Source of the DNA: Companilactobacillus farciminis KCTC 3681 = DSM 20184
GTDB taxonomy: Bacteria > Bacillota > Bacilli > Lactobacillales > Lactobacillaceae
Assembly: GCF_002706745.1 (NCBI RefSeq)
Contig: NZ_CP017702.1
Span: forward strand, 124,001 to 188,000
Direction: 5' to 3'
Length of the DNA: 64,000 bases
Positions 40,147-52,026 of the stretch are shown piece by piece. The notes beneath the pieces are model-generated. The model was not told the origin of the DNA, ran no database searches, and was given only the letters and a program-made list of their open reading frames with translations. Made by a program: the position numbers and the translations under genes. Each line of letters starts with the position of its first letter. Position 1 is the first letter of the stretch.

Positions 40147-40203
40147 TGGAAATACACCCCTTTTTTATGATTCTTTCTTAATTTAGTTAAGTGTTAAATT
40201 GTC

Positions 40204-40372
40204 GTCTTCCACACAAGTTCTGTGATTGGCTGGAGAATGTCGACACTATTTTGAGCTTTTGCATGGACCCAAAGACGCAAAATCTCAAAACTAGGCCTTT
40301 TTGTAAGTGCTAAAGCACTAACAAAAAATTTGGCGGCTGAGCCATCACAGAACTTGTGCTCCAGACTAGATA
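40204..40372 (+). ncRNA. Structured repeat element A (putative structured RNA)
   Basis: A 15-bp terminal stem CACAAGTTCTGTGAT (40212-40226) with ATCACAGAACTTGTG (40344-40358), extended inward across a bulged T by GGCT/AGCC and outward by GTCT/AGAC. Inside are TTTTGC/GCAAAA flanked by GAG/CTC, and TTTTTGT-AGTGC/GCACT-ACAAAAA. It shares the blocks TGGCTGGAGAATGT, GGCTGAGCC and GACTAGATA with elements B and C, although its terminal stem sequence is different. No promoter or terminator is evident. Confidence 0.7.
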
Positions 40373-40422
40373 ACGTCTCCTATTCCTTATTTCAATAATT
40401 AAGAGAAAAATAATAGAACCAC

Positions 40423-40589
40423 TATCTAGTCCGGAATAGCAAAGAAAATTGGCTCAGCCGTGAAATTTCTCTTGGCAATTTATTGCCTAGTGAAAGGTCG
40501 AGCTTGAAGACTTTGCCCGGTTTTGGTCTTAGCAAAGGCTCCAAGTCGTGCACACATTCTCCAGCCAAATTTTCTTTGCTATGGAGGAC
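40423..40589 (-). ncRNA. Structured repeat element B (putative structured RNA)
   Basis: Read on the minus strand: GTCC-TCC, stem ATAGCAAAGAAAATT, bulged T, GGCT, an internal region, AGCC, AATTTTCTTTGCTAT, TCC-GGAC, TAGATA. The inner part has CTTTGC/GCAAAG and GGCAAT-AA-ATTGCC hairpins. Nearly identical to element C at 51773-51940 and homologous to element A, with compensatory changes in both stems. It lies between the divergent permease and Bce-like genes. Confidence 0.7.
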
Positions 40590-40660
40590 GGCATCCTACA
40601 CACTAATTTCAGAAAGGATATTTTTAATATATCGTCAATATTATATCGCTTTAATCCAGA

Positions 40661-40686
40661 CTTACAAAAGTGTAAGAAGATGTAAG
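40661..40686 (+). promoter_or_regulatory. BceR-type operator before the ABC exporter
   Basis: CTTACA-AAAG-TGTAAG (40661-40676) is an inverted repeat fitting the BceR-like box TnACA-N4-TGTnA, with an extra TGTAAG half-site ten bases on. A TATGAT -10-like sequence (40719-40724) follows at activator spacing. Implies control by a two-component system encoded elsewhere. Confidence 0.55.
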
Positions 40687-40752
40687 GAGAATCGCACGAC
40701 CAAAATGACATTAACTATTATGATAGATATATCAAATGGAGGGAAGTAAAAA

Positions 40753-41505
40753 ATGCAAAAAATCGTCGAAGTACAAAATATTGAAAAGATTTATGGAAAG
40801 GCTGGAGAGAAACAATTTAAAGCCTTGTCAGACGTTAATTTTGAAGTAAAACCCGGCGAATTCGTTGGAATTATGGGTGCTTCAGGTTCAGGTAAAACTA
40901 CTTTATTGAATATTCTATCTACATTAGATACCCCTACTAGTGGAAAAGTTCAAATTGCTGGTCAAGATATTACTAAATTAAATAACAATCAAATGGCAGA
41001 CTTTCGTGCTAATAAAATTGGATTTATCTTCCAAGACTTTAACTTACTAGAAAATTTAACAGCTTATGAAAATATTGCTTTGCCATTAGCGTTACAAAAT
41101 AAACCAGCTAAGACAATCAAGCCAGCAGTTTCAAGTATTGCTGAAAAATTAGGTTTAACAGAGATTTTAAACCACTATCCAACTGAATTGTCTGGTGGTC
41201 AAAAACAACGTGTTGCGGCTGCTCGTGCTTTGGTTCATGAACCATCAATCGTCTTTGGGGATGAACCAACGGGTGCTTTGGATTCCAAGAGTGCTCGTGC
41301 CTTGATGGATACTTTAACTAAAATCAACCGTGAAGATAAAGTTTCAATTTTACTAGTAACTCATGATCCATTTTCAGCTAGTTTCTGTGATCGAATTCTT
41401 TTCATCAAAGATGGTGAAATCGGTCAAGAATTGAAGAAAGAAGACTCAAGTAGAGCTGAATATTATCAAGAAATCTTAGATTCATTAGGAACATTTGCAG
41501 AATAG
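40753..41505 (+). CDS. Bce-like peptide-resistance ABC transporter, ATP-binding protein
   Basis: 250 residues. 'GIMGASGSGKTTLLNILSTLDTPTSG' Walker A region, 'FIFQDFNLLENLTAYENIALPLAL', signature 'ELSGGQKQRVAAARAL', 'VFGDEPTGALDSKSA' and 'LVTHDPFSASFCDR' are those of BceA/YxdL ATPases that protect against cell-wall-active peptides. GGAGGG before the ATG. Forms an operon with the FtsX-type permease. Confidence 0.92.
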   Translation: MQKIVEVQNIEKIYGKAGEKQFKALSDVNFEVKPGEFVGIMGASGSGKTTLLNILSTLDTPTSGKVQIAGQDITKLNNNQMADFRANKIGFIFQDFNLLENLTAYENIALPLALQNKPAKTIKPAVSSIAEKLGLTEILNHYPTELSGGQKQRVAAARALVHEPSIVFGDEPTGALDSKSARALMDTLTKINREDKVSILLVTHDPFSASFCDRILFIKDGEIGQELKKEDSSRAEYYQEILDSLGTFAE

Positions 41506-41516
41506 GGGAGGAAAAT

Positions 41517-43307
41517 ATGTTAAACAAATTAGCTTTAAGTGGTATCAAGCACCGTCTACGTGATTACAGTGTTCTGTTTTCAGGTTTGATGATTGCTTCA
41601 GCCATCTTTTATATGTTTATGTCATTAGCGACAAACAAAGCGTTCTTGAGTTCAAATTCCCCAGCTGCTGCAACTAGTTTCATCTTCGCTTTCGGGATTG
41701 TTCTTCTAGCAATTATTACTATCGTCTACATTAATTACGCCAACACCTTTCTGTTGAGCATGCGCCAAAAAGAGTATGGGATGTTTATGATGCTCGGTGC
41801 GAAGAGTAGTAAAATTTCTAAAATGATTTTCGTTGAAACATTCGCTATCGGTGCCATTTCAACTATTATCGGTACTTTGATTGGTATCGTAGCAACTAGT
41901 TTTGTCAGCCGTTGGTTGATCAGTATGTTAGATATGCAAGTTAAGCATTTCAGCAGTTTTTATCTACCAGCTTTAATTTGGACATTTGTCTTCTTCATCG
42001 TGATCTTTATTTTCTCAGCTTTGAGAAATTCAATTTCCTTACGTAGAACTAAAGTTTTAACGTTATTGAACCGTGACAGTCAACCAGTCAAAATTAAACG
42101 TAACGGCGTTTTAAAAGCTATTCAAGCTGTTCTAGGTTTAATTTTGTTAGCTATTGGTTATTTCACAATGTACTTCTCAGGTAATAATCCTGGAGCCATC
42201 TATCTAGGTATTCCGGTCGCTTTAGTAACAATCGTTGGTGGTTCATATTTCACAATCAATGCCTTTGTCACAACTTTGATCGTTATGTTGAAGAAGAATA
42301 CGAAATTCTCTCAAAAAGGTTTGAATAACTTCACACTTTCACAATTGAGTTTCCGAATCAATGATTACACAAAGATTCTTTCAATGGTTTCTATCATGTT
42401 TGCTTTAGCTCTAGGTGCTATTACGGTTGGACTTGGTTTCAACAATCAAATCGACAACGTTGTAAATGGCCAAAACTACTATGACGTACAACTAACTAAT
42501 CCAGATACAGCTCAAAATAAACGTGTAAAGAATTTAGATATTGATGAAAAAGTCACTTACAATTACAAAACTGATGGTAAGAACGTTTACTATCGTGCTA
42601 GTGAATTTAAGAAACAACCAATCGGTTACTCAAAAATCGATATCAACACTATGAAATCTAGTCTCAAAAAATCATCTGATTTGGCCAACAATACTAATGC
42701 CAAGTATGAATTGATGAATACGAGATTGCCTCAAACAAGAACTATGGAAGCTAAATTCATCAGTGATCAAGAATACGATGCTATCAATAGTCCCGTAACT
42801 ACGACTGTGCTAGTTAAAACTAATTCATTCAAAGATAATTTACCTGAAATCAAAGCCATTTCTAAGGCCGAAAATAAACGTTATCCAATCTTGAAGAAGG
42901 CTGGCGGCGATAAACTTGCTGCTTACACTATCATCAATGGTTTCTTCTCAGGATTAGAATTCATGGGCTTCTTCTTAGGAATCGCCTTTCTAGCTATGTT
43001 AGCAAGTTGCTTGATGTTCAAGATCTTGTCTGGTGCTAACAGTGATGTTAAACGTTATAACATGCTTTATAAGATTGGTACTAAACCTAAGACATTACGT
43101 GCAAGCATCAATAAAGAAATTGCTGTCTTGTTCTCAGTACCGGCAATCTTAGGAATCATCCACGTTTTAATTGGTCTACAATTATTCGTCAAGATTCTTT
43201 ATCAACCATACATGCACATTGAAATTCCTTTCGCTATCTTCATTGTCTTGTATCTTGGCTACTACTTCTTAACGAGATATCTTTACAAGAAGATCGTTCT
43301 AAAATAA
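41517..43307 (+). CDS. Bce-like ABC transporter permease (FtsX domain)
   Basis: 596 residues, about ten membrane segments, two FtsX modules and a large extracellular domain (about 320-445) between the seventh and eighth segments, the BceB architecture. 'MRQKEYGMFMMLGAKSSKISKMIFVETFAIG' is the first FtsX motif. Slightly shorter than typical BceB. No kinase or regulator gene is adjacent, unusual for Bce modules. Confidence 0.9.
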   Translation: MLNKLALSGIKHRLRDYSVLFSGLMIASAIFYMFMSLATNKAFLSSNSPAAATSFIFAFGIVLLAIITIVYINYANTFLLSMRQKEYGMFMMLGAKSSKISKMIFVETFAIGAISTIIGTLIGIVATSFVSRWLISMLDMQVKHFSSFYLPALIWTFVFFIVIFIFSALRNSISLRRTKVLTLLNRDSQPVKIKRNGVLKAIQAVLGLILLAIGYFTMYFSGNNPGAIYLGIPVALVTIVGGSYFTINAFVTTLIVMLKKNTKFSQKGLNNFTLSQLSFRINDYTKILSMVSIMFALALGAITVGLGFNNQIDNVVNGQNYYDVQLTNPDTAQNKRVKNLDIDEKVTYNYKTDGKNVYYRASEFKKQPIGYSKIDINTMKSSLKKSSDLANNTNAKYELMNTRLPQTRTMEAKFISDQEYDAINSPVTTTVLVKTNSFKDNLPEIKAISKAENKRYPILKKAGGDKLAAYTIINGFFSGLEFMGFFLGIAFLAMLASCLMFKILSGANSDVKRYNMLYKIGTKPKTLRASINKEIAVLFSVPAILGIIHVLIGLQLFVKILYQPYMHIEIPFAIFIVLYLGYYFLTRYLYKKIVLK

Positions 43308-43319
43308 GTTTTACAGTTC

Positions 43320-43376
43320 CTTTCCGAGGAACTGAGCACGACGGGTATTTACCTTTCGTGCTCAGCTTCTCGGAAG
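43320..43376 (+). repeat. Branched 3'-UTR hairpin after the Bce-like permease
   Basis: An outer stem TTCCGAG/CTCGGAA encloses GAGCACGA/TCGTGCTC, which closes on a small GGTA/TACC loop. There is no T-tract, so it is not itself a terminator. A C6 run (ACTCCCCCCTTAA, near 43385) follows. Could be a processing or stability element or part of a 3'-UTR-derived RNA. Confidence 0.45.
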
Positions 43377-43430
43377 AGAAGCACTCCCCCCTTAATAATT
43401 ATTCGAAATCCTCAACAAGTTTCGTAAATA

Positions 43431-43466
43431 AAAATCCACGTTTATTAAAAAAATGTGGATTTTTTT
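43431..43466 (+). terminator. Terminator of the Bce-like operon
   Basis: AAAATCCAC and GTGGATTTT with a 15-base loop and a T7 run. Confidence 0.8.
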
Positions 43467-43625
43467 GATTGTTCGAAAAAATTTTTTTGAGGGGTTCAAG
43501 GACTAACCAAGACTGTCATAATGCCCGTATTATAGATTTTATAAGTAATTTTTATTTGGACTTGAAACCGAACATTTATCTCATAAAAATAACTTTTTGT
43601 TGCTAAATCTCCGGAAAAATATTAG

Positions 43626-43640
43626 AATTTTCTTAATAAA
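43626..43640 (+). promoter_or_regulatory. Possible CodY box before the glutamine transporter
   Basis: AATTTTCTTAATAAA agrees with AATTTTCWGAAAATT at 11 of 15 positions, 46 bases before the ATPase start. CodY control of glutamine and peptide transport would be reasonable, but AT-rich chance matches are common. The rest of 43467-43685 shows no gene. Confidence 0.3.
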
Positions 43641-43685
43641 AAAAATTAAATTAAATTTTTGTTAATGAAGAAGGGAGAATTAAAT

Positions 43686-44423
43686 ATGTCAATGATCGAA
43701 TTCCGCGACGTACAGAAATATTATGGTGATTTCCATGCCCTAAAAGATATCAACTTGAAAATTGACAAGGGGGAAACGGTAGTTTTAATCGGGCCCTCTG
43801 GTTCTGGAAAAAGTACTTTAGCTAGAACGGTTAATGGTCTAGAGACGATACAAGAAGGTCAACTGATCGTCAATGGTCATGACATAGCCGACAAAGCAAC
43901 TGATATCAACTTGATCAGAAAAGATGTCGGTATGGTTTTCCAACACTTTAACTTGTATGCCAATAAAGATGTCTTAGAAAATATTATGTTAGCTCCAAGA
44001 ATCGTTTTGAAATTAGACGAAGAAGAGAATAAGAAACAAGCGATGAATTTGTTAGACCAAGTTGGTTTGGCTGACAAAGCTCACAACATGCCTTCACAAA
44101 TCTCTGGTGGGCAAAAGCAACGTGTGGCGATTGCTAGATCTTTGGCGATGAAACCTCGTTGCATGCTCTTCGACGAACCAACTAGTGCGCTTGATCCAGA
44201 AATGATCGATGATGTTTTGAACGTTATCAAATACGTTACTAATCAAGGCGACATGACTTCTCTAATCGTTACTCACGAAATGGGATTTGCTCAAGAAGTA
44301 GCTAATCGAGTTATTTTCATGGACCAAGGTCAAATTCTAGAAGATGAAGCTACGGATAAATTTTACAATCATCCTGATAATGAACGTGCTAGACAATTCT
44401 TGAGTAAAATTATTAAACATTAG
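43686..44423 (+). CDS. glnQ: Polar amino acid (glutamine-type) ABC transporter ATP-binding protein
   Basis: About 245 residues from the ATG at 43686 (GAAGGGAG seven bases upstream; a longer in-frame start at 43659 is unlikely). 'LIGPSGSGKSTLARTVNGLE', 'MVFQHFNLYANKDVLENI', 'QISGGQKQRVAIARSL', 'LFDEPTSALDPEMIDDVL' and 'IVTHEMGFAQEVANRV' are typical of GlnQ/GltL proteins. First gene of a four-gene importer operon. Confidence 0.93.
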   Translation: MSMIEFRDVQKYYGDFHALKDINLKIDKGETVVLIGPSGSGKSTLARTVNGLETIQEGQLIVNGHDIADKATDINLIRKDVGMVFQHFNLYANKDVLENIMLAPRIVLKLDEEENKKQAMNLLDQVGLADKAHNMPSQISGGQKQRVAIARSLAMKPRCMLFDEPTSALDPEMIDDVLNVIKYVTNQGDMTSLIVTHEMGFAQEVANRVIFMDQGQILEDEATDKFYNHPDNERARQFLSKIIKH

Positions 44424-44434
44424 GGGGTAGTATT

Positions 44435-45258
44435 ATGAAACGACTGAAATATTTGATGTTGATGATTACTTCTTTGCTACTCTTGCTCACGTTGTCAGCC
44501 TGTGGATCAAAACCGTTGTCTTCTCAAAATGTGCTCGAAAATGATAAGCAGAGTAAGACAATAACGTGGGGTGTCAAAGCTGATACTAAATTGTTAGGCT
44601 TGATCGACGTTAAGGATGGTAAAGAAAAAGGATTTGAAATTGATTTAGCAACGGCTCTAACTAAGAAAATGATTGGAAAAGATGCTAAGGCTAAATTTGT
44701 TACCGTTACATCGCAGTCACGTATTCCACTATTGAAAAACGGTAATATCGACGCTATCATCGCTACAATGACCATAACGCCAGAACGTCAGAAGACGATT
44801 AACTTCTCTAATTCATATTTTGACGCTGGACAGTCATTGTTGGTCAAAGATGATTCATCAGTGAAGAAGGTCGAAGATTTGAACAATAAAACTATCATTG
44901 GGGTAGTTGGTTCAAACTCTGTTGAAAATGTTAAAAAATTTGCTCCAAAAGCTCAAGTGCTTCAATTGCCGGATTATGCTCAAGCACTAACAGCTTTGAA
45001 ATCAGGTCAAGGCGATGCTTTAACGACTGATAACGTAATTTTAGCTGGTATGGCAGTCAACAATCCAGGCTATAAATTACAAGGTAAGGCCTTTACGACT
45101 GAACCATATGGTATTGGTATCAATAAGGGCCAAGATGACTTTAGAAAAGCCGTCAATAAAGCTTTGAAAGAAGTACAACAAGATGGAACTTACAACAAAT
45201 TGATTGTTAAGTGGTTTGGTGATGTTCCTGGATTTAACTATAAGGAGGTGTTACGCAA

Positions 45259-45262
<4 letters not shown>
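44435..45262 (+). CDS. glnH: Amino acid ABC transporter substrate-binding lipoprotein
   Basis: 275 residues with a lipoprotein signal ending LSAC (about residue 23). SBP_bac_3 domain: 'WGVKADTKLLGLIDVKDGKEKGFEIDLATAL', 'IDAIIATMTITPERQKTINFSNSYFDAGQSLLV', 'GVVGSNSVENV'. The TxTxER segment is the ligand-binding signature of glutamine/glutamate binders. Stop overlaps the first permease gene (ATGA). Confidence 0.92.
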
Positions 45263-45897
<635 letters not shown>

Positions 45898-45909
45898 GAG
45901 GGGTAGATT

Positions 45910-46563
45910 ATGCAAAATTGGATAAATGCTTATTCATGGATAAATATTAGATTTCTTCTCCAAGGCTTGTCGGTAACGATTTTGATCTCCGTTATATCGG
46001 TGGTCTTAAGTTTTATTTTCGGTTCAGTTTTGGGGATTGTCCGTTACAGTAAGGTTCCTTATTTATCAAAGATTATTGGTTTCATAATTGATGTTATTCG
46101 TAATTTGCCACTGCTATTGATTATCTTCTTTGTTTACTTTGGCTTGCCGGCCTTTGGGTTCAAACCAGATACGATTCCAGCCGCAATTTTAGCGATGACA
46201 GTCTTTGAATCAATGATGATTGCTGAAATCATTCGTTCTGGTATTATGGCGGTCAATATCGGCCAAATGGAAGCTTCCAGAGCGATGGGAATGACTTTTA
46301 CTCAAGCAATGTGGCATGTCGTTTTACCACAAGCTTACAAAAAGATGATTCCGGCTTTGGTTAGTCAATTTATCTCACTGATCAAGGATACTTCTTTGGC
46401 AACTATCATCGTTGTGCCAGAATTGATGCAACATGGGCAAGTCGTTTATGGACAAGACCCTAATTACATCATTCCAGTCTTTGTGGCCATGGCTTTGATG
46501 TACTTTGTCGTCTGCTATGCTTTGTCATTGTTGTCCAAGTATATTGATCATAAAATGGCATAA
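45910..46563 (+). CDS. Amino acid ABC transporter permease (HisM/GlnP-like) 2
   Basis: 217 residues, five membrane segments, paralogous to the preceding permease. 'DVIRNLPLLLIIFFVYFGLP' and 'EIIRSGIMAVNIGQMEASRAMGMTFTQAMWHVVLPQA' hold the EAA loop. GGAGGGG before the ATG. Last gene of the importer operon; the T-box promoter begins 14 bases later. Confidence 0.92.
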   Translation: MQNWINAYSWINIRFLLQGLSVTILISVISVVLSFIFGSVLGIVRYSKVPYLSKIIGFIIDVIRNLPLLLIIFFVYFGLPAFGFKPDTIPAAILAMTVFESMMIAEIIRSGIMAVNIGQMEASRAMGMTFTQAMWHVVLPQAYKKMIPALVSQFISLIKDTSLATIIVVPELMQHGQVVYGQDPNYIIPVFVAMALMYFVVCYALSLLSKYIDHKMA

Positions 46564-46577
46564 AAAAATAATTAAGG

Positions 46578-46606
46578 TTGACAGAGTAATTTAAGCCTGT
46601 TATTGT
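46578..46606 (+). promoter_or_regulatory. Promoter of the T-box leader
   Basis: TTGACA (46578-46583), a 17-base spacer and TATTGT (46601-46606), with TG at 46598-46599 giving an extended -10. Confidence 0.75.
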
Positions 46607-46612
46607 TTATGT

Positions 46613-46857
46613 CAATCAAATAAACACATATAAGTGTCTGAATCAATTAGTAATGCATCTGGGTGTAAGAAAGCCGGTGGTTGATGCGAACCGGTCAGGG
46701 TGTAGTTATGAAATACCAGACATGACTTGGTTTTCCAAGCGGAATAAGAGAGCCGTTATTCTCAAGAGTGGAGCAATAGTTTATTTAGACTATTCTCAAG
46801 CTGGGTGGTACCACGGTAAATCGTCCCTGTTGCATAATTGCAGCAGGGACTTTTTTT
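46613..46857 (+). ncRNA. T-box riboswitch, predicted tyrosine (UAC) specificity
   Basis: The T-box sequence GGGTGGTACCACG (46803-46815) is followed by a 12-bp terminator (46823-46834 with 46839-46850, loop TAAT, T7). Stem I closes with GTCTG (46636)/CAGAC (46727), has the loop-E pair AGTA (46649) and GAA (46720), and then A-TAC, placing the specifier at UAC (46724-46726) as in glyQS (GAA-A-GGC). The variable T-box base U fits a tRNA with discriminator A, as tRNA-Tyr has. Uncharged tRNA-Tyr should allow read-through into the NhaC gene. Confidence 0.88.
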
Positions 46858-46948
46858 ATACAAAGGGTGAGAAAATGATGCATACTTGTGGTGGTAATCC
46901 TCGATATTAGTTTTGTCGGATTAGATAGAAATAATTGGAGGAATTAGG

Positions 46949-48364
46949 ATGAATAAGAGTAAAAAGACAGTCAGTTTTAGAGAAGCAATCTCTATCTTAG
47001 TAGTTATGTTAGTTATTTTAGGTTTGGGTGTTATCAAATTTGGTTTGTCACCTCAAACGCCAGTTTTAGTAGTCATTGGATTATTGATCTTATGGTCAAA
47101 AATTCGTGGCAGCAGTTGGGATGAAATTTTTGACGGAATCTCTGATGGGGTTCGTAACGGTATTATTCCCATTTTCATTTTTATTTTAATTGGTTCGTTG
47201 ATCGGTACTTGGATTGCTGCTGGAATTATTCCATCAATGATGGTTGCCGGCTTCCATATGATTTCCGCTCAATGGTTCGTACCATCAGTTTTCGTCGTTT
47301 GTGCTTTGATTGGTACTTCTATCGGTAGTGCTTTTACCATCGTTTCAACTATCGGAATTGCACTATTCGGAATGGGTCAAACATTGGGAATGAATCCTGC
47401 TTTAGTTGCTGGGGCTATCATTTCTGGAGCTATCTTTGGTGATAAGACTTCACCACTTTCAGATTCAACTAACTTGGCATCAGCTATTGCCGAAGATGAT
47501 TTGTTCGCTCACATTAAGAACTTGATGTGGACCACAATTCCCGCATTCTTGATCTCATTAGTTCTTTACACTATTTTAGGTAATGCCGGTTCTACTGATA
47601 ATCTTGGTAAAATCGATACGACATTGAATGTTTTAAATAGCCATTTCTTCATTTCTTGGTGGGCCATTCTACCAATTGCACTATTGTTTGTATGTTCAAT
47701 CATGAAGGTTCCAGCTGTTGCAACATTGCTATTGAACATTACCGTGACAGTCGGAATGATCTTTATTGAAAATCCTAATACTCAAGTTAAAAGCGTTGCT
47801 GGATTTATCGAAAATGGATTCGTTTCAAAAACTGGTAATGCTAGTGTTGATGCTTTATTGACCCGTGGTGGTATTAGTTCCATGATGGGTACAGTTTCAT
47901 TGATTTTCTTAACTCTTTCCTTAGGTGGCTTATTAATGAAGTTTGACGTTATTCAAACTGCTATGAAGCCTCTAGCTGAAAAGCTTCAATCAAATGGTGC
48001 TGTCGTTACTGCTACAATTCTTTCCGGTATTGGAGTTAATATCTTCGTCGGTGAACAATACTTATCAGTTATTCTTCCTGGTAAAGCTTTCAAAGAAACT
48101 TTCAACAAACGTGGTCTTGATAACTTAGCTTTGAGTCGTGTGCTTGAAGATGGTGGTACTGTAATCAACTACTTGATTCCTTGGGGTGTTGCCGGAGCCT
48201 TCGTTGCTAATACTTTAGGCGTACCAACATTGTCATTCTTGCCATTCTGTTTCTTCAGTCTTTTGTCACCAATCCTTTCTATCCTTAGTGGATTCACTGG
48301 TATTGGCTTAAAAAAGTTAGACAAGAGTAAGGCTACCGATAAAAAAGTTGCCGAATTGGCATAA
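46949..48364 (+). CDS. NhaC-family transporter, probably tyrosine-related
   Basis: 471 residues, about 12 membrane segments, Na+/H+ antiporter NhaC family: 'GSAFTIVSTIGIALFGMGQTLGMNP', 'AIISGAIFGDKTSPLSDSTNLASAIAEDDLFAH' and 'GEQYLSVILPGKAF'. Although named antiporters, NhaC members behind Tyr T-boxes are predicted to move tyrosine. The T-box here reads UAC, supporting that. SD TTGGAGG before the ATG. Single gene closed by a terminator. Confidence 0.88.
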   Translation: MNKSKKTVSFREAISILVVMLVILGLGVIKFGLSPQTPVLVVIGLLILWSKIRGSSWDEIFDGISDGVRNGIIPIFIFILIGSLIGTWIAAGIIPSMMVAGFHMISAQWFVPSVFVVCALIGTSIGSAFTIVSTIGIALFGMGQTLGMNPALVAGAIISGAIFGDKTSPLSDSTNLASAIAEDDLFAHIKNLMWTTIPAFLISLVLYTILGNAGSTDNLGKIDTTLNVLNSHFFISWWAILPIALLFVCSIMKVPAVATLLLNITVTVGMIFIENPNTQVKSVAGFIENGFVSKTGNASVDALLTRGGISSMMGTVSLIFLTLSLGGLLMKFDVIQTAMKPLAEKLQSNGAVVTATILSGIGVNIFVGEQYLSVILPGKAFKETFNKRGLDNLALSRVLEDGGTVINYLIPWGVAGAFVANTLGVPTLSFLPFCFFSLLSPILSILSGFTGIGLKKLDKSKATDKKVAELA

Positions 48365-48392
48365 AATTATTTTTATAAAAAATGAAAGAAAC

Positions 48393-48406
48393 TGTAAACG
48401 CTAACC
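48393..48406 (+). promoter_or_regulatory. Possible cre site
   Basis: TGTAAACGCTAACC matches the cre consensus at 13 of 14 positions, but it lies between the NhaC stop and its terminator, an odd position for regulation. May act as a roadblock or be chance. Confidence 0.3.
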
Positions 48407-48446
48407 ACGTTGCCGCAGTTAAATTCTAATAATAATTCATTAAATT

Positions 48447-48473
48447 ATAGAGCAGAAATGCTCTATTTTTTTT
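48447..48473 (+). terminator. Terminator of the NhaC-family gene
   Basis: ATAGAGCA and TGCTCTAT with loop GAAA (GNRA-type), followed by T8. Confidence 0.9.
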
Positions 48474-48556
48474 GCGACAGACGTTGACATCATAGTAAAA
48501 CTTGGCTAGTTTAATGATTGTTATGCTGTTTTTAAAAGCAAATTAGGGAGATCATT

Positions 48557-49471
48557 ATGAAGAAAATCAAAATCGCCATTTGGGGTATTAATGTTGTTTT
48601 AGTGGCTATTATCCTCTTTTTAGTTATGGGAAAGGGAATGAATAATAGTAATAGTACAGATACGGCTGAAAAAACTTATACCGTTCGTACTGACAATAGC
48701 AATTATTTTAACGGAATTGTTCAAGAAACTGATAAACAAGCTGTTAGCGACCAACCTAAGTCAGAAGATGAAACATTGGCTTCTACAAGAGTGATCAACG
48801 GTCAAAAAGTTACTAAGGGACAAGTCTTGTTTACATTTTATCGTGATATGAGCAGTGACTTGGCTAGTGCTAATAGTGAAATTCAACAAGCACAATTAGC
48901 TATCCAAGATTACAATTCATCAGATAAAGCTACTGCTGACAAAATTGAATTGAGCAAGAATCAAGAAGCTTTGGCATTAGCTCAAGCTAAGTTGAACAAA
49001 ATCAGCAAGGCTCAAAACAGAACCGTTATAGCGCCTATTAGTGGAACTTACTATAAGGATGATTCTGGCAGAGCTTATATTTACGGTTCACCTGTGATTC
49101 AAGGGAATGTAAATGAATACAGCTTGAGTAAGATCAAACTAGGTCAAAATGTCACTGTAATTAAGAATGATGGCAAAAAGATTTCAGGTAACTTCCAACA
49201 AAAAGATGCTATTCCTTATAGCACTCGCAATGTTTCTTACTACCACTTTAGAGTTGCGACCGATTCTAAATTATCTTATGGAATGCACGTCCAAATCAAA
49301 ACTGAAGCTGACGGCTACAAGATTCCTAAGAATGCACTTTGGGAAAGAAATACTGTTAAAGTCCTAAAGAACGGCAAGAAGCACAAAAAACACGTCACTA
49401 TTAAGAAGAAAGACCAAGATTACTACATAATCGACGGCCTAAAAGCTGGCGACAAGATAGTTTTGAAATAA
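48557..49471 (+). CDS. Membrane-fusion (adaptor) protein of a MacAB-like exporter
   Basis: 304 residues. One N-terminal membrane anchor ('IAIWGINVVLVAIILFLVMG'), then a short coiled-coil hairpin ('QQAQLAIQDYN', 'ALAQAKLNKI') between lipoyl halves ('INGQKVTKGQVLFTFY', 'TVIAPISGTYYKDDSG'), then beta-barrel domains. Bridges the permease to the cell exterior. GGGAG precedes the ATG. First of a four-gene operon; a TTGACA at 48484 may be the -35. Confidence 0.85.
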   Translation: MKKIKIAIWGINVVLVAIILFLVMGKGMNNSNSTDTAEKTYTVRTDNSNYFNGIVQETDKQAVSDQPKSEDETLASTRVINGQKVTKGQVLFTFYRDMSSDLASANSEIQQAQLAIQDYNSSDKATADKIELSKNQEALALAQAKLNKISKAQNRTVIAPISGTYYKDDSGRAYIYGSPVIQGNVNEYSLSKIKLGQNVTVIKNDGKKISGNFQQKDAIPYSTRNVSYYHFRVATDSKLSYGMHVQIKTEADGYKIPKNALWERNTVKVLKNGKKHKKHVTIKKKDQDYYIIDGLKAGDKIVLK

Positions 49472-49483
49472 GGCGGTGAAAAA

Positions 49484-50161
49484 ATGCTAAAAGTTACTGA
49501 TATAGGTAAGACTTACGGCGAATTCACTGCTTTGCAAAATATCAATCTGGAAGTTAAAGATGGTGAATTTTTGGCTATCATGGGCCCTTCTGGATCTGGT
49601 AAGTCAACTTTGATCAATATCTTAGGATTGCTTGACCAAAGTTATACTGGTGAATATTTGCTAGGAAATAAGAACTATCAAACTGTAAACGACAATGAAT
49701 TATCACAAATTCGTGGTGATCAATTGGGATTTGTCTTTCAAAATTTCAAGTTGCTTTCAACGTATACAGTTTATGAAAATATCGAAGTGCCATTAATTTA
49801 TAGTAAAAAAGTTCAAAACAACAAGCACCAGTTGATTGAATCAGTGATTGAAAAAGTTGGCCTAAAAGGTAAAGAAAAGAATTTACCAACGGAGCTCTCT
49901 GGTGGACAGCAACAAAGAGTCGCAATTGCTCGAGCCATTGTTAACCAGCCCAAATTAGTTATCGCTGACGAACCAACTGGGGCCTTGGATTCAAAGACTA
50001 GTAAAGAGATTATGGATATCTTTGAAAAATTGAACCAAGATGGAACGACAATCATCATGGTTACTCACGATAGCGAAGTAGCTGAACATGCCATGCGTAC
50101 TGTTTATATTCGTGATGGTCGACTATATAACGATGAAAAGAGTGTGAAGAATCATGACTGA
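49484..50161 (+). CDS. MacB-like ABC transporter ATP-binding protein
   Basis: 225 residues. 'AIMGPSGSGKSTLINILGLLDQSYTG', 'FVFQNFKLLSTYTVYENIEVPLIY', 'ELSGGQQQRVAIARAIVNQP', 'VIADEPTGALDSKTS' and 'MVTHDSEVAEHAMR' are typical of LolD/MacB-type ATPases. Overlaps the permease start by 8 bases. Confidence 0.93.
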   Translation: MLKVTDIGKTYGEFTALQNINLEVKDGEFLAIMGPSGSGKSTLINILGLLDQSYTGEYLLGNKNYQTVNDNELSQIRGDQLGFVFQNFKLLSTYTVYENIEVPLIYSKKVQNNKHQLIESVIEKVGLKGKEKNLPTELSGGQQQRVAIARAIVNQPKLVIADEPTGALDSKTSKEIMDIFEKLNQDGTTIIMVTHDSEVAEHAMRTVYIRDGRLYNDEKSVKNHD

Positions 50162-51305
50162 TAAAATTTCAATCGCACTCAAATCGATTACTAAAAATAA
50201 AAACCGTAACTTTTTGACAATGCTTGGAATTATCATTGGTATCGCTAGTGTTATTTGTATCTTGGCGATCGGTGATGGTTTCACGCATACGGTTACTAAA
50301 GGGATGGGTAGCCACAACGTAAAAAATAAGGTTACTTTGCAGTGGGAATCTAAGTCTGTCTACGATACTGACGGTGGTTTTACTAAGAACGATGCTTCAG
50401 CTCTAAGTAGCGTTAAAGGCATTGATCACGTCAAACTAGCCAGTAGCGTTGTTGAAGCTGGTGCCAAAGTTCAGTACAAGACTAAGAATGTCAGTATCGG
50501 CTTGAACAAACAGCCTAAACATTTGAAATTAGTCAAAGGAACGTATTTGCCACTAGACGGTGATTCCAGTGGCGTTTATATTTCTGAATATTTAGCTCAT
50601 AAATTGTTTAAGAAGAATGCTCTTAATCGTTTAATTACTATCGATGGAACAGTCTTTGTAGTCCAAGGGATTTATCGTGTGGGAACGATGGATTATCGAC
50701 CAGATGCCTATGTTTCTAAAACGACTTTCAAACAATTATTTGCGAACCAAATCTCTAAGGATCAGGCAAAATTGTACGTCACTTCTGATGCTAATAAAAA
50801 ACAAGTCGGTAAAAGAGCTACTAAATTAATGAAGAAGATTGGTGAACAGAAGAAGACTGGTACGTATTCAGTTTCAAATCCTGATCAAATCAGTAAGCAA
50901 TTTACTAAGATTCTCAATGATATTACTTACTTCATCGCCTTTATTGCTGGAATTTCATTGTTGATTGCTGGTATTGGGGTTATGAACGTAATGTACATAA
51001 CGGTTTCAGAACGCCGAAAAGAAATTGGAATCAGACGTGCTTTCGGTGCTACATCAGGCGATATCCGTAACCAATTCCTAATTGAAAGTGTCGTTCTTTG
51101 TATAATTGGTGGAATTATTGGAATTATCTTCGGTTATATTTTTGTAAGTATCATTAACACCTTCTTACCATTTAAAGCCGTTATAACGCCTTATGCAATT
51201 ATCTTGTCGTTAGCGGTATCGACAGCAGTTGGTTTAATATTCGGATTTATTCCTTCTAATAAGGCAGCTAAGTCAGAATTAGTTGGATTGTTGAAAGAAG
51301 AATAG
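50154..51305 (+). CDS. MacB-like ABC transporter permease
   Basis: 383 residues: N-terminal membrane helix after 'ALKSITKNKNRNFLTMLGIIIGIASV', a large extracellular MacB_PCD domain, then three helices with 'GIGVMNVMYITVSERRKEIGIRRAFGAT' FtsX motif. Works with the adaptor and ATPase to export peptides or other toxic compounds. Confidence 0.92.
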   Translation: MTDKISIALKSITKNKNRNFLTMLGIIIGIASVICILAIGDGFTHTVTKGMGSHNVKNKVTLQWESKSVYDTDGGFTKNDASALSSVKGIDHVKLASSVVEAGAKVQYKTKNVSIGLNKQPKHLKLVKGTYLPLDGDSSGVYISEYLAHKLFKKNALNRLITIDGTVFVVQGIYRVGTMDYRPDAYVSKTTFKQLFANQISKDQAKLYVTSDANKKQVGKRATKLMKKIGEQKKTGTYSVSNPDQISKQFTKILNDITYFIAFIAGISLLIAGIGVMNVMYITVSERRKEIGIRRAFGATSGDIRNQFLIESVVLCIIGGIIGIIFGYIFVSIINTFLPFKAVITPYAIILSLAVSTAVGLIFGFIPSNKAAKSELVGLLKEE

Positions 51306-51313
51306 GGGAAAAT

Positions 51314-51766
51314 ATGAAAAAATTATACAAGTTAGATAAATTGTCAGTACTAGGGATTATTTTAATCAGTATCCTAATGACAGTTATTGAAATGATTGTT
51401 TCAGATCCAAACGTTTCACAAATGCCACAAATGGGTAAGTGGTTGAAGTTATTGCTATATGTAATTGGTGCAGTTGTTAGTTTTGCAATTGGTTACTGGT
51501 TGTTTACTCTCTTATTGAGAAACAACGACAATTACAAAGTGAAATTAGTAATCAATTTGGCAATTGGTTTAGCCATCGAGGCTGTGTTGATCACTATCAT
51601 CTACTTGATTGCTAAAAAGACTAATGTTTGGGTCAACGGAATCGCCGGAGTACTTGGTTTTGGAACTTTGGCATTATTGAATTGGAAGTTCTTAGAAGTA
51701 CCTCAATCAGATAAGATCAAAGTCAGTGTTTTGACAGGAATTTGGTTTGTCCTAGCCTTGTTCTAA
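51314..51766 (+). CDS. Small membrane protein of the MacAB-like operon
   Basis: 150 residues with about four to five membrane helices, eight bases after the permease, GGGGAAAAT before the ATG. No family recognised. Co-transcribed with the exporter and followed directly by structured element C. Confidence 0.7.
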   Translation: MKKLYKLDKLSVLGIILISILMTVIEMIVSDPNVSQMPQMGKWLKLLLYVIGAVVSFAIGYWLFTLLLRNNDNYKVKLVINLAIGLAIEAVLITIIYLIAKKTNVWVNGIAGVLGFGTLALLNWKFLEVPQSDKIKVSVLTGIWFVLALF

Positions 51767-51772
51767 GATGCC

Positions 51773-51940
51773 GTCCTCCATAGCAAAGCAAATTTGGCTG
51801 GAACAATGTGGGCACGACTTGGAGCCTTTGCTAAGCCCAAGTTCGGGCAAAGTCTTCAAGCTCGACCTTTCACTAGGCAATAAATTGCCAAGAGAAATTT
51901 CACATTTGAGCCAATTTGCTTTGCTATTCCGGACTAGATA
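51773..51940 (+). ncRNA. Structured repeat element C (putative structured RNA)
   Basis: GTCC (51773-51776), stem ATAGCAAAGCAAATT (51780-51794), bulged T, GGCT, internal hairpins, AGCC, AATTTGCTTTGCTAT (51913-51927), GGAC (51931-51934), TAGATA. Nearly identical to element B, but the tenth stem pair is C-G instead of A-U: both strands changed. It begins seven bases after the preceding stop codon, so it is transcribed as a 3' UTR or from its own start. Confidence 0.72.
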
Positions 51941-51966: not shown

Positions 51967-52026
51967 CATCTATTCAGATATAATGAGTCTGTTTTCTATG
52001 ACCAGAAATCTGAATAGATGTTTTTT
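51967..52026 (+). terminator. Terminator of the MacAB-like operon
   Basis: CATCTATTCAGAT and ATCTGAATAGATG form a perfect 13-bp stem around 28 bases, then T6. Confidence 0.85.

What the first reader, a model, noticed from the sequence alone, without database searches (positions are those of the whole stretch)
40204..51940. Structured repeat family with compensatory base changes in three copies
Elements at 40204-40372 (+), 40423-40589 (-) and 51773-51940 (+) share TGGCTGGAGAATGT, GGCTGAGCC and GACTAGATA blocks around a long terminal stem. In A the stem is CACAAGTTCTGTGAT and in B ATAGCAAAGAAAATT, each perfectly paired with its own partner. B and C differ by an A-U to C-G double change, and the outer pair is GTCT/AGAC in A but GTCC/GGAC in B and C. 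Inner hairpins also keep pairing with different sequence. That is covariation, the mark of a selected RNA (or single-strand DNA) structure rather than a plain MITE. Possibly one of the Lactobacillales RNA motifs already catalogued; I cannot check.
Basis: seen in the sequence. Interest (0 to 1): 0.85.

Follow-up and report, generated by a model that had tools for sequence, protein, structure and literature searches.

The report
Paired folded repeats in lactobacilli
The three copies belong to a family of about 170-base folded repeats, some 97 in this genome and found in several genera of lactobacilli, often in facing pairs; their sequences get swapped between copies while the fold is kept, so the fold itself appears to be what matters.

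Summary
Observation confirmed and extended. The copies belong to a dispersed ~170-nt family: 97 model matches in this Companilactobacillus genome, matches in 34 of 36 genomes of the genus and in 7 of 80 sampled genera of the order. Each arm folds into an outer stem P1, inner stem P2 and hairpins P3/P4. Double changes occur in 39 of 58 pairs within the genome and 55 of 58 in 78 matches from other genomes. Rfam has no match.

A and B form one unit: all 24 close pairs in the genome are convergent. Some units carry terminal inverted repeats. Orthologous sites can be empty, carry other subtypes, or (A/B site, G003) carry the unit inverted. 14 orthologous arms have median identity 81%, flanks 93%: modules are exchanged while pairing is kept.

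The mark of plus-strand RNA is weak: outside mainly-G.U pairs, A.C mismatches are as common as G.U. "Selected structure" is supported; "RNA rather than MITE" is not. Best reading: a MITE/BOX-like non-autonomous element whose single-strand fold, probably DNA, is selected. No mobilising enzyme was identified.

The parts
40169..40193 (+). left terminal repeat of the A/B unit (GATTCTTTCTTAATTTAGTTAAGTG)
   Evidence: matches the family end GGTTCTTTCTTAACTTCGGTTAGTG with 5 mismatches (letters checked); same position in G031 and G003
40200..40372 (+). arm A: P1 stem CACAAGTTCTGTGAT/ATCACAGAACTTGTG, GGCTGGAGAATG/TGAGCC internal-loop region, hairpins P3 and P4
   Evidence: model R1 163.4 bits, E 7e-42; fold z -5.97
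40373..40422 (.). spacer between the facing 3' ends of A and B; G003 carries a close reverse complement of it at the orthologous site
40423..40593 (-). arm B (P1 stem ATAGCAAAGAAAATT/AATTTTCTTTGCTAT)
   Evidence: model R1 158.6 bits; fold z -3.80
40599..40619 (-). right end of the A/B unit (reverse complement ATCCTTTCTGAAATTAGTGTG)
   Evidence: similar sequence at the right end of the orthologous G003 unit; too diverged for the motif search, which reported no terminal repeat here
51769..51940 (+). arm C, solo, starts 2 nt after the stop codon of the ORF 51314-51766; outer pair GTCC 51773-51776 with GGAC 51931-51934
   Evidence: model R1 178.4 bits; fold z -5.38
51967..52026 (+). hairpin CATCTATTCAGAT (51967-51979) with ATCTGAATAGATG (52008-52020) followed by six T, downstream of arm C; similar hairpins with paired changes sit in several unit spacers printed
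   Evidence: spacers; not called by the simple terminator scan (its loop limit is 8)

Best explanation
A new family of non-autonomous, MITE/BOX-like interspersed elements of Lactobacillaceae. A full unit is: terminal inverted repeat, structured arm 1, spacer (often with a terminator-like hairpin), structured arm 2 in inverted orientation, terminal inverted repeat. Each arm folds by itself into a long outer stem, an inner stem and a junction with two hairpins. Nearly invariant non-Watson-Crick spots are kept in the 78 aligned sequences from other genomes: the TGGAA/TGA internal loop, a C.T mismatch in P3 and an A.A mismatch in P4. I think the fold acts as single-stranded nucleic acid, most likely DNA extruded during replication or transposition, recognised by a trans-acting recombinase or transposase. 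Copies then diversify by exchange of whole modules, and of whole unit orientation, at fixed sites. Shown: family, fold, covariation, convergent pairing, in-place difference of modules, one inversion, sites without the element. Inferred: DNA rather than RNA, a trans-acting enzyme, and selection on the fold for mobility.
For: 97 matches in the genome. 39 of 58 pairs (32 copies of this genome) and 55 of 58 (78 matches from other genomes) have double changes; slid controls collapse. 24 of 24 close pairs are convergent, and 65 of 72 adjacent pairs in other genomes' loci. 66 of 73 units overlap no ORF of 90 codons or more. In G003 the A/B unit aligns at 89% in the orientation opposite to its flanks; six genomes printed have no unit there. 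The C site has no arm in G031 and G003. 14 orthologous arms: median 80.6% identity, flanks 92.8%; 9 of 14 are more than 5 points below their flanks. The unit end motif occurs at 25 of 97 arm 5' sides, against 0.000-0.002 per random 90-base stretch of the window. L. bayanensis has 280 matches to a 27-nt end motif, 0 in the reversed control. Paired positions diverge 0.018, unpaired 0.058 among 29 close copies, yet the TGA and TAAA loops show 0 changes and the P3 apical loop 0.15.
Against: No transposase with matching ends was found. The six ISL3-type ISs of the genome have 8-bp target duplications (6 of 6), the same size class as the direct repeats of two units, but their ends agree with the unit end at only 15 and 13 of 25 bases, about the best match of a random 800-base stretch (mean 14.3). 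Y1 transposase and reverse transcriptase are absent from this genome; other transposase families were not tested. 72 of 97 arm sides show no recognisable end motif. No target-site duplication could be shown in L. bayanensis (41 units, some nested). 5 of 14 orthologous arms are not markedly below their flanks. In P2 one position is U.G in 18 of 32 copies, which fits plus-strand RNA better than DNA. The most distant matches (L112-L118) lack the CTGGAAC motif.
Confidence: 0.5

Rival explanations
1. A functional RNA element: arms are transcribed (for example in 3' UTRs, before the terminator-like hairpin of the spacer) and the RNA fold protects or processes messages; dispersal is secondary.
For: Strong covariation and nearly invariant non-canonical loops as in functional RNAs. 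Several arms begin a few nt after a stop codon, C at 2 nt. Spacer hairpins look like terminators. Counting all pairs, G.U exceeds A.C 107:22 and 239:98; U.G is common at one P2 pair and G.U/A.U exchange occurs at the inner end of P2.
Against: Outside mainly-G.U pairs, G.U:A.C is 26:22 (within the genome) and 49:89 (other genomes), against 15:0 in tRNAs. Orientation to the neighbouring gene on the 5' side of the 49 solo arms is about even (22 downstream of a co-oriented gene, 27 facing a gene start). Copies are absent from some orthologous sites.
Confidence: 0.25
2. Palindromes maintained by mutation alone: polymerase template switching between hairpin arms copies one side onto the other and so makes compensatory changes, and inverts spacers, without selection.
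For: 18 double-changed against 25 single-sided cells among 29 copies about 3% diverged, where 3.9 double changes are expected if sides were independent. Few wobble intermediates. One whole-unit inversion. The process is described for hairpins (PMC8794818) and for arm homogenisation with spacer inversion (PMC8604942); of both I saw only the search listing with the start of the abstract.
Against: Template switching should erase mismatches, yet the TGGAA/TGA loop, the C.T in P3 and the A.A in P4 are kept in 92-99% of the 75-78 sequences with letters there. Loop letters that it cannot protect are conserved while the P3 apical loop is not.
Confidence: 0.15
3. An ordinary decaying MITE family whose copies fold only because of their inverted repeats; covariation reflects a few subfamilies and shared ancestry.
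For: Terminal repeats at some units, direct repeats at 2 of 2 testable units, mostly intergenic position, many degenerate ends.
Against: Internal hairpins P3 and P4, not part of any terminal repeat, covary in matches from other genomes and occur in different combinations. Orthologous arms differ by modules yet stay paired.
Confidence: 0.06

Closest known systems
BOX elements of Streptococcus pneumoniae (PMC3049150, passages read; also named in the MITE review PMC10969869, passages read)
   Same: high-copy repeat, modular, strongly folded, with terminal inverted repeats and target-site duplications; proposed to be moved in trans by an IS
   Different: other bacteria; BOX is built of boxA-boxB-boxC modules, not two unlike inverted arms; the passages read mention no cross-genus junction with conserved loops and no in-place module exchange; sequences were not compared
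MRSC-65-2 mobile/repeat motif (PMC11109978, passages read)
   Same: dozens of copies per genome, covarying stem, authors think it may be relevant as DNA
   Different: a single long stem from diverse phyla with a UYCCGG repeat; ours is a multi-branched arm found so far in one bacterial family, without a constant UYCCGG
REP/BIME with RAYT transposase (recalled; PMC2817692 seen as search listing with start of abstract)
   Same: dispersed palindromes, over 100 copies per genome, in alternating orientation
   Different: REP is 20-40 nt (recalled); no Y1 transposase in this genome although it holds 97 matches
Integron attC sites (recalled, no call)
   Same: folded DNA site with conserved extrahelical bases and free stem sequence
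   Different: no integrase, cassette array or attC core site was looked for; resemblance in principle only

Membership tests
Rfam structured RNA family | match at or above the gathering score | tested here: not met
   0 matches in the window; nothing relevant at lax E-values in 601 bases of the window and 10 loci; only rRNA and tRNA in 140 kb of G031 that holds arms
MITE | terminal inverted repeats | tested here: inconclusive
   end motif recognised at 25 of 97 arm 5' sides, both sides of a unit in 2 (chance at most 0.002 per side); 280 end-motif matches in L. bayanensis, 41 units with both ends cut out of the loci held
MITE | target-site duplication | tested here: inconclusive
   7-9 nt direct repeats at the 2 of 2 units with both ends recognised; none above shuffled pairing in 41 L. 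bayanensis units
MITE | empty orthologous sites | tested here: met
   A/B site without unit in six genomes printed; C site without arm in G031 and G003; 360546 copy absent from G031. Whether these are pre-insertion sites or losses is not decided
MITE | autonomous element with the same ends | tested here: inconclusive
   six ISL3 copies compared: ends agree at 15 and 13 of 25 bases, at chance level, but target duplications are 8 bp; other transposase families not tested
BOX element | boxA/boxB/boxC sequence modules | not tested
   no BOX sequence was compared
REP/BIME | resident Y1 (RAYT) transposase | tested here: not met
   PF01797 absent from this genome; present in 18 of 36 of the genus, including G007, which has no element match
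Retron or RT-copied element | reverse transcriptase in the genome | tested here: not met
   PF00078 absent from this genome; present in 12 of 36, including G034, which has no element match
Functional plus-strand RNA | G.U tolerated far more than A.C in helices | tested here: inconclusive
   all pairs 107:22 and 239:98; without mainly-G.U pairs 26:22 and 49:89
Functional RNA | transcription | not testable with these tools
   no RNA-seq at hand

The most novel reading that the evidence does not exclude
The arms are substrates of an undescribed host or element-encoded recombination system that works on folded single-stranded DNA: it recognises the three-way junction through the conserved TGGAA/TGA loop and moves, inverts and replaces arms or modules in place at about a hundred chromosomal sites, so that stem sequences are free but pairing is not. 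Two unlike arms per unit would keep each arm from pairing with its inverted partner.
Probability: 0.25. Interest if true: 0.9.

Novelty: new variant of a known kind. Interest (0 to 1): 0.72.

Why it matters
It is a case where extreme covariation, normally taken as strong evidence of functional RNA, occurs in a dispersed repeat with little of the wobble signature of RNA. That makes it a natural test of how far covariation separates RNA selection, DNA-fold selection and template switching. The fold is kept across 7 sampled genera while sequence modules differ at orthologous sites of close relatives, so an active exchange process may be observable in the laboratory in food bacteria. RNA-motif surveys of lactobacilli may meet these elements and should not take them for single-gene regulators without further evidence.

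Tried and rejected
Rfam at gathering and lax thresholds: nothing relevant. ISL3 transposase as mobiliser: ends agree only at chance level although the 8-bp target duplications fit in size (the first automatic inverted-repeat search, missed the IS ends). Y1 and RT enzymes: absent here. Plasmids with arm C and phages with the A/B unit as query: no match at blastn sensitivity. IMG/VR: 0 exact pattern matches. Promoter/terminator scans: not clearly above shuffles in the A/B and C regions. Gene carried inside a unit: only an IS3-type insertion seen; seven units of other species, some with long spacers, were printed and read by eye, not searched for genes. Target-site duplication in L. bayanensis: not found. 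Literature searches (nine of ten allowed) listed no paper on this family in an open-licence library; lists were capped and subscription papers are not covered.

Rows dropped: 59 of 60 blastn loci entered the first alignment (L058 truncated); 32 were chosen by eye as representatives for A1, from which model R1 was built; A2 was made from 41 chosen sources and leaves out the most distant loci L112-L118; it is fitted to the model structure and leans towards it. 29 alpha copies of near-equal length entered; 58 of 59 entered, whose module cuts are crude. In one search, five of the two-flank sites have no G031 arm in my list (355257, 360546, 385057, 546398, 618762; two of these hold arm remnants or another subtype) and weak or cut matches were left out. 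In one search the exclusion of mainly-G.U pairs works against G.U; both counts are given. Cells count copies, not independent events, and gene conversion makes many of them dependent. R-scape was not available; shuffles and slid partners were used instead.
Full report
What was checked. They fold better than shuffles (z -5.4, -6.0, -3.8). Rfam has nothing in the window at gathering scores, and nothing relevant at lax scores in part of the window and ten related loci.

Family. blastn with C and A against the genome gave 42 and 50 matches (E limits 0.001 and 10, only 40 candidates scored each time; the weakest of the 50 are short). A covariance model R1 built from 32 chosen copies of this genome finds 97 places at E <= 0.01 (150 of 993 candidates scored; the weakest few are partial). 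With the same model 34 of 36 genomes of the genus, this one included, have matches, and 0 of 24 others in that sample (at most 46 candidates scored per genome). In a wider sample 25 of 395 genomes of the order match, in 7 of 80 genera, all of the same family (7 candidates scored per genome, strict filters). Those are in Companilactobacillus, three Lapidilactobacillus species and one contig of a Limosilactobacillus metagenome bin.

Fold. The arm has an outer GTCN/N'GAC stem, TCC on both sides, a stem P1 of about 15 bp, a GGCT/AGCC clamp, the internal loop TGGAA(C)/TGA, stem P2, and a junction with hairpins P3 and P4. On the 32 copies RNAalifold predicts 58 pairs, 39 with double changes. 98.4% of cells pair, against 80.7% when shuffled and 27-47% when slid. 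On 78 matches from other genomes 55 of 58 pairs have double changes and 95.4% of cells pair (that alignment is fitted to the model and leaves out the most distant loci). The letters of the internal loop are 93-99% conserved in those sequences, and conserved mismatches sit in P3 (C.T, 92% and 97%) and P4 (A.A, 99% and 95%). Among 29 close alpha copies the TGA and TAAA loops show no change, GGAAC 2 of 145 cells, and the P3 apical loop 53 of 348.

Arrangement. A and B are one unit. In this genome 24 of 24 close pairs are convergent, 3' ends inward, with spacers near 51-53, 95-129 and 162-176 (one 209; one pair overlaps); 49 arms are solo. In 80 loci of other genomes 65 of 72 adjacent pairs within 1200 bases are convergent (180 of 185 matches used, loci may overlap); the exceptions are tandem copies. 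In the units printed the two arms are of different subtypes. Several spacers hold a hairpin with changing but paired sequence. By a simple ORF of 73 units overlap no ORF of 90 codons or more; six overlap one of about 270-320 bases and one weak partial match overlaps a 998-base ORF. Neighbouring genes are tandem at 44 units, convergent at 16, divergent at 12, one undetermined.

Mobility. Some units end in GGTTCTTTCTTAACTTCGGTTAGTG and its inverse. At the two units where both ends are recognised (749545 and 1187311 in genome coordinates) direct repeats of 8-9 and 7-8 nt flank them. The end motif (up to 7 mismatches in 25) was recognised at 25 of 97 arm sides examined, against at most 0.002 per random 90-base stretch. 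In L. bayanensis a 27-nt end motif has 280 matches with up to 3 mismatches, 0 for the reversed control, and 41 units, mostly about 490-500 bp, were cut out (some nested, up to 630). No target-site duplication was seen there. The genome's six ISL3 ISs each have an 8-bp target duplication, but their ends agree with the unit end at 15 and 13 of 25 bases, no better than the best match in random 800-base stretches (mean 14.3, up to 20). Y1 transposase and RT are absent from this genome. So the mobiliser is unknown.

Turnover at fixed sites. At the A/B site G031 and G003 also carry a convergent pair between the same flanks, but of other subtypes. In G003 the unit aligns at 89% in the orientation opposite to its flanks and the spacer is a close reverse complement. 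Six genomes printed (G013, G025, G033, G026, G007, G030) have a short sequence with no unit there; many of the 36 matched on one flank only and say nothing. G015 lacks the unit at this place but has a pair about 100 bases further on. At the C site G031 and G003 have no arm, only a short hairpin after a stretch resembling the arm's first bases. In 340 kb of G031, 14 orthologous arms have median identity 80.6% against 92.8% for flanks; 9 of 14 lie more than 5 points below their flanks, 5 do not. P1, P2, P3 and P4 variants occur in 18 combinations in 58 copies by a crude cut. So modules appear to be exchanged between copies, and pairing survives.

RNA or DNA. A plus-strand RNA should tolerate G.U but not A.C. 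Counting all pairs the numbers are 107:22 (32 copies) and 239:98 (78 copies), but most G.U cells sit in a few columns of and beside P2. Without pairs that are mainly G.U they are 26:22 and 49:89. Nineteen distinct tRNAs gave 15:0 of 409 pairs (ARAGORN's own pairing rules favour this). In 29 close copies single-sided changes are 16 A.C, 5 G.U and 4 others, against 18 double changes. The minus strand is slightly more stable. One P2 pair with U.G in 18 of 32 copies points the other way. This does not prove DNA, but it weakens the usual support for RNA.

Verdict. The most likely reading is a trans-mobilised, MITE/BOX-like element whose single-strand fold is selected and whose copies exchange modules. 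A regulatory RNA and pure template-switch maintenance remain as rivals; the conserved mismatches speak against the latter. The BOX and MRSC comparisons rest on passages read, and the template-switching papers on search listings only.

Noticed in passing
L112-L118 (genomes G029, G018, G002, G006, G021, G010, G005): More distant relatives of the arm lack the CTGGAAC motif, and several seem to carry an additional hairpin at the junction (read by eye).
   Followed up: no
L293 (G015, orthologue of the A/B locus): No unit at the A/B position but a convergent pair about 100 bases further towards the ABC transporter gene.
   Followed up: no
G278:C4:201748-202231 and C5:138466-138788: Runs of two or three arms in the same orientation, unlike the usual convergent pairs.
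   Followed up: no
L119 (G000:C1:1988598-1990668): An IS3-type two-ORF insertion sequence (type by eye) lies between a plus arm and a minus fragment, apparently inserted into a unit.
   Followed up: partly
L. bayanensis genome (G425): 280 end-motif matches in 2.4 Mb, several in doublets 125-127 bp apart, suggesting nested or tandem truncated arms.
   Followed up: partly
L360 and L361, C site: Where G000 has arm C, relatives have a short hairpin with differing paired sequence after a stretch ATTCCGTYGT like the start of an arm.
   Followed up: no
L202 (contig DXGK01000099.1): A single arm in a metagenome bin named Limosilactobacillus; could be transfer or mis-binning.
   Followed up: no
L107 1097-1450: Sub-threshold match to the cspA thermoregulator RNA (56.3 bits, gathering 78) next to an arm.
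   Followed up: no
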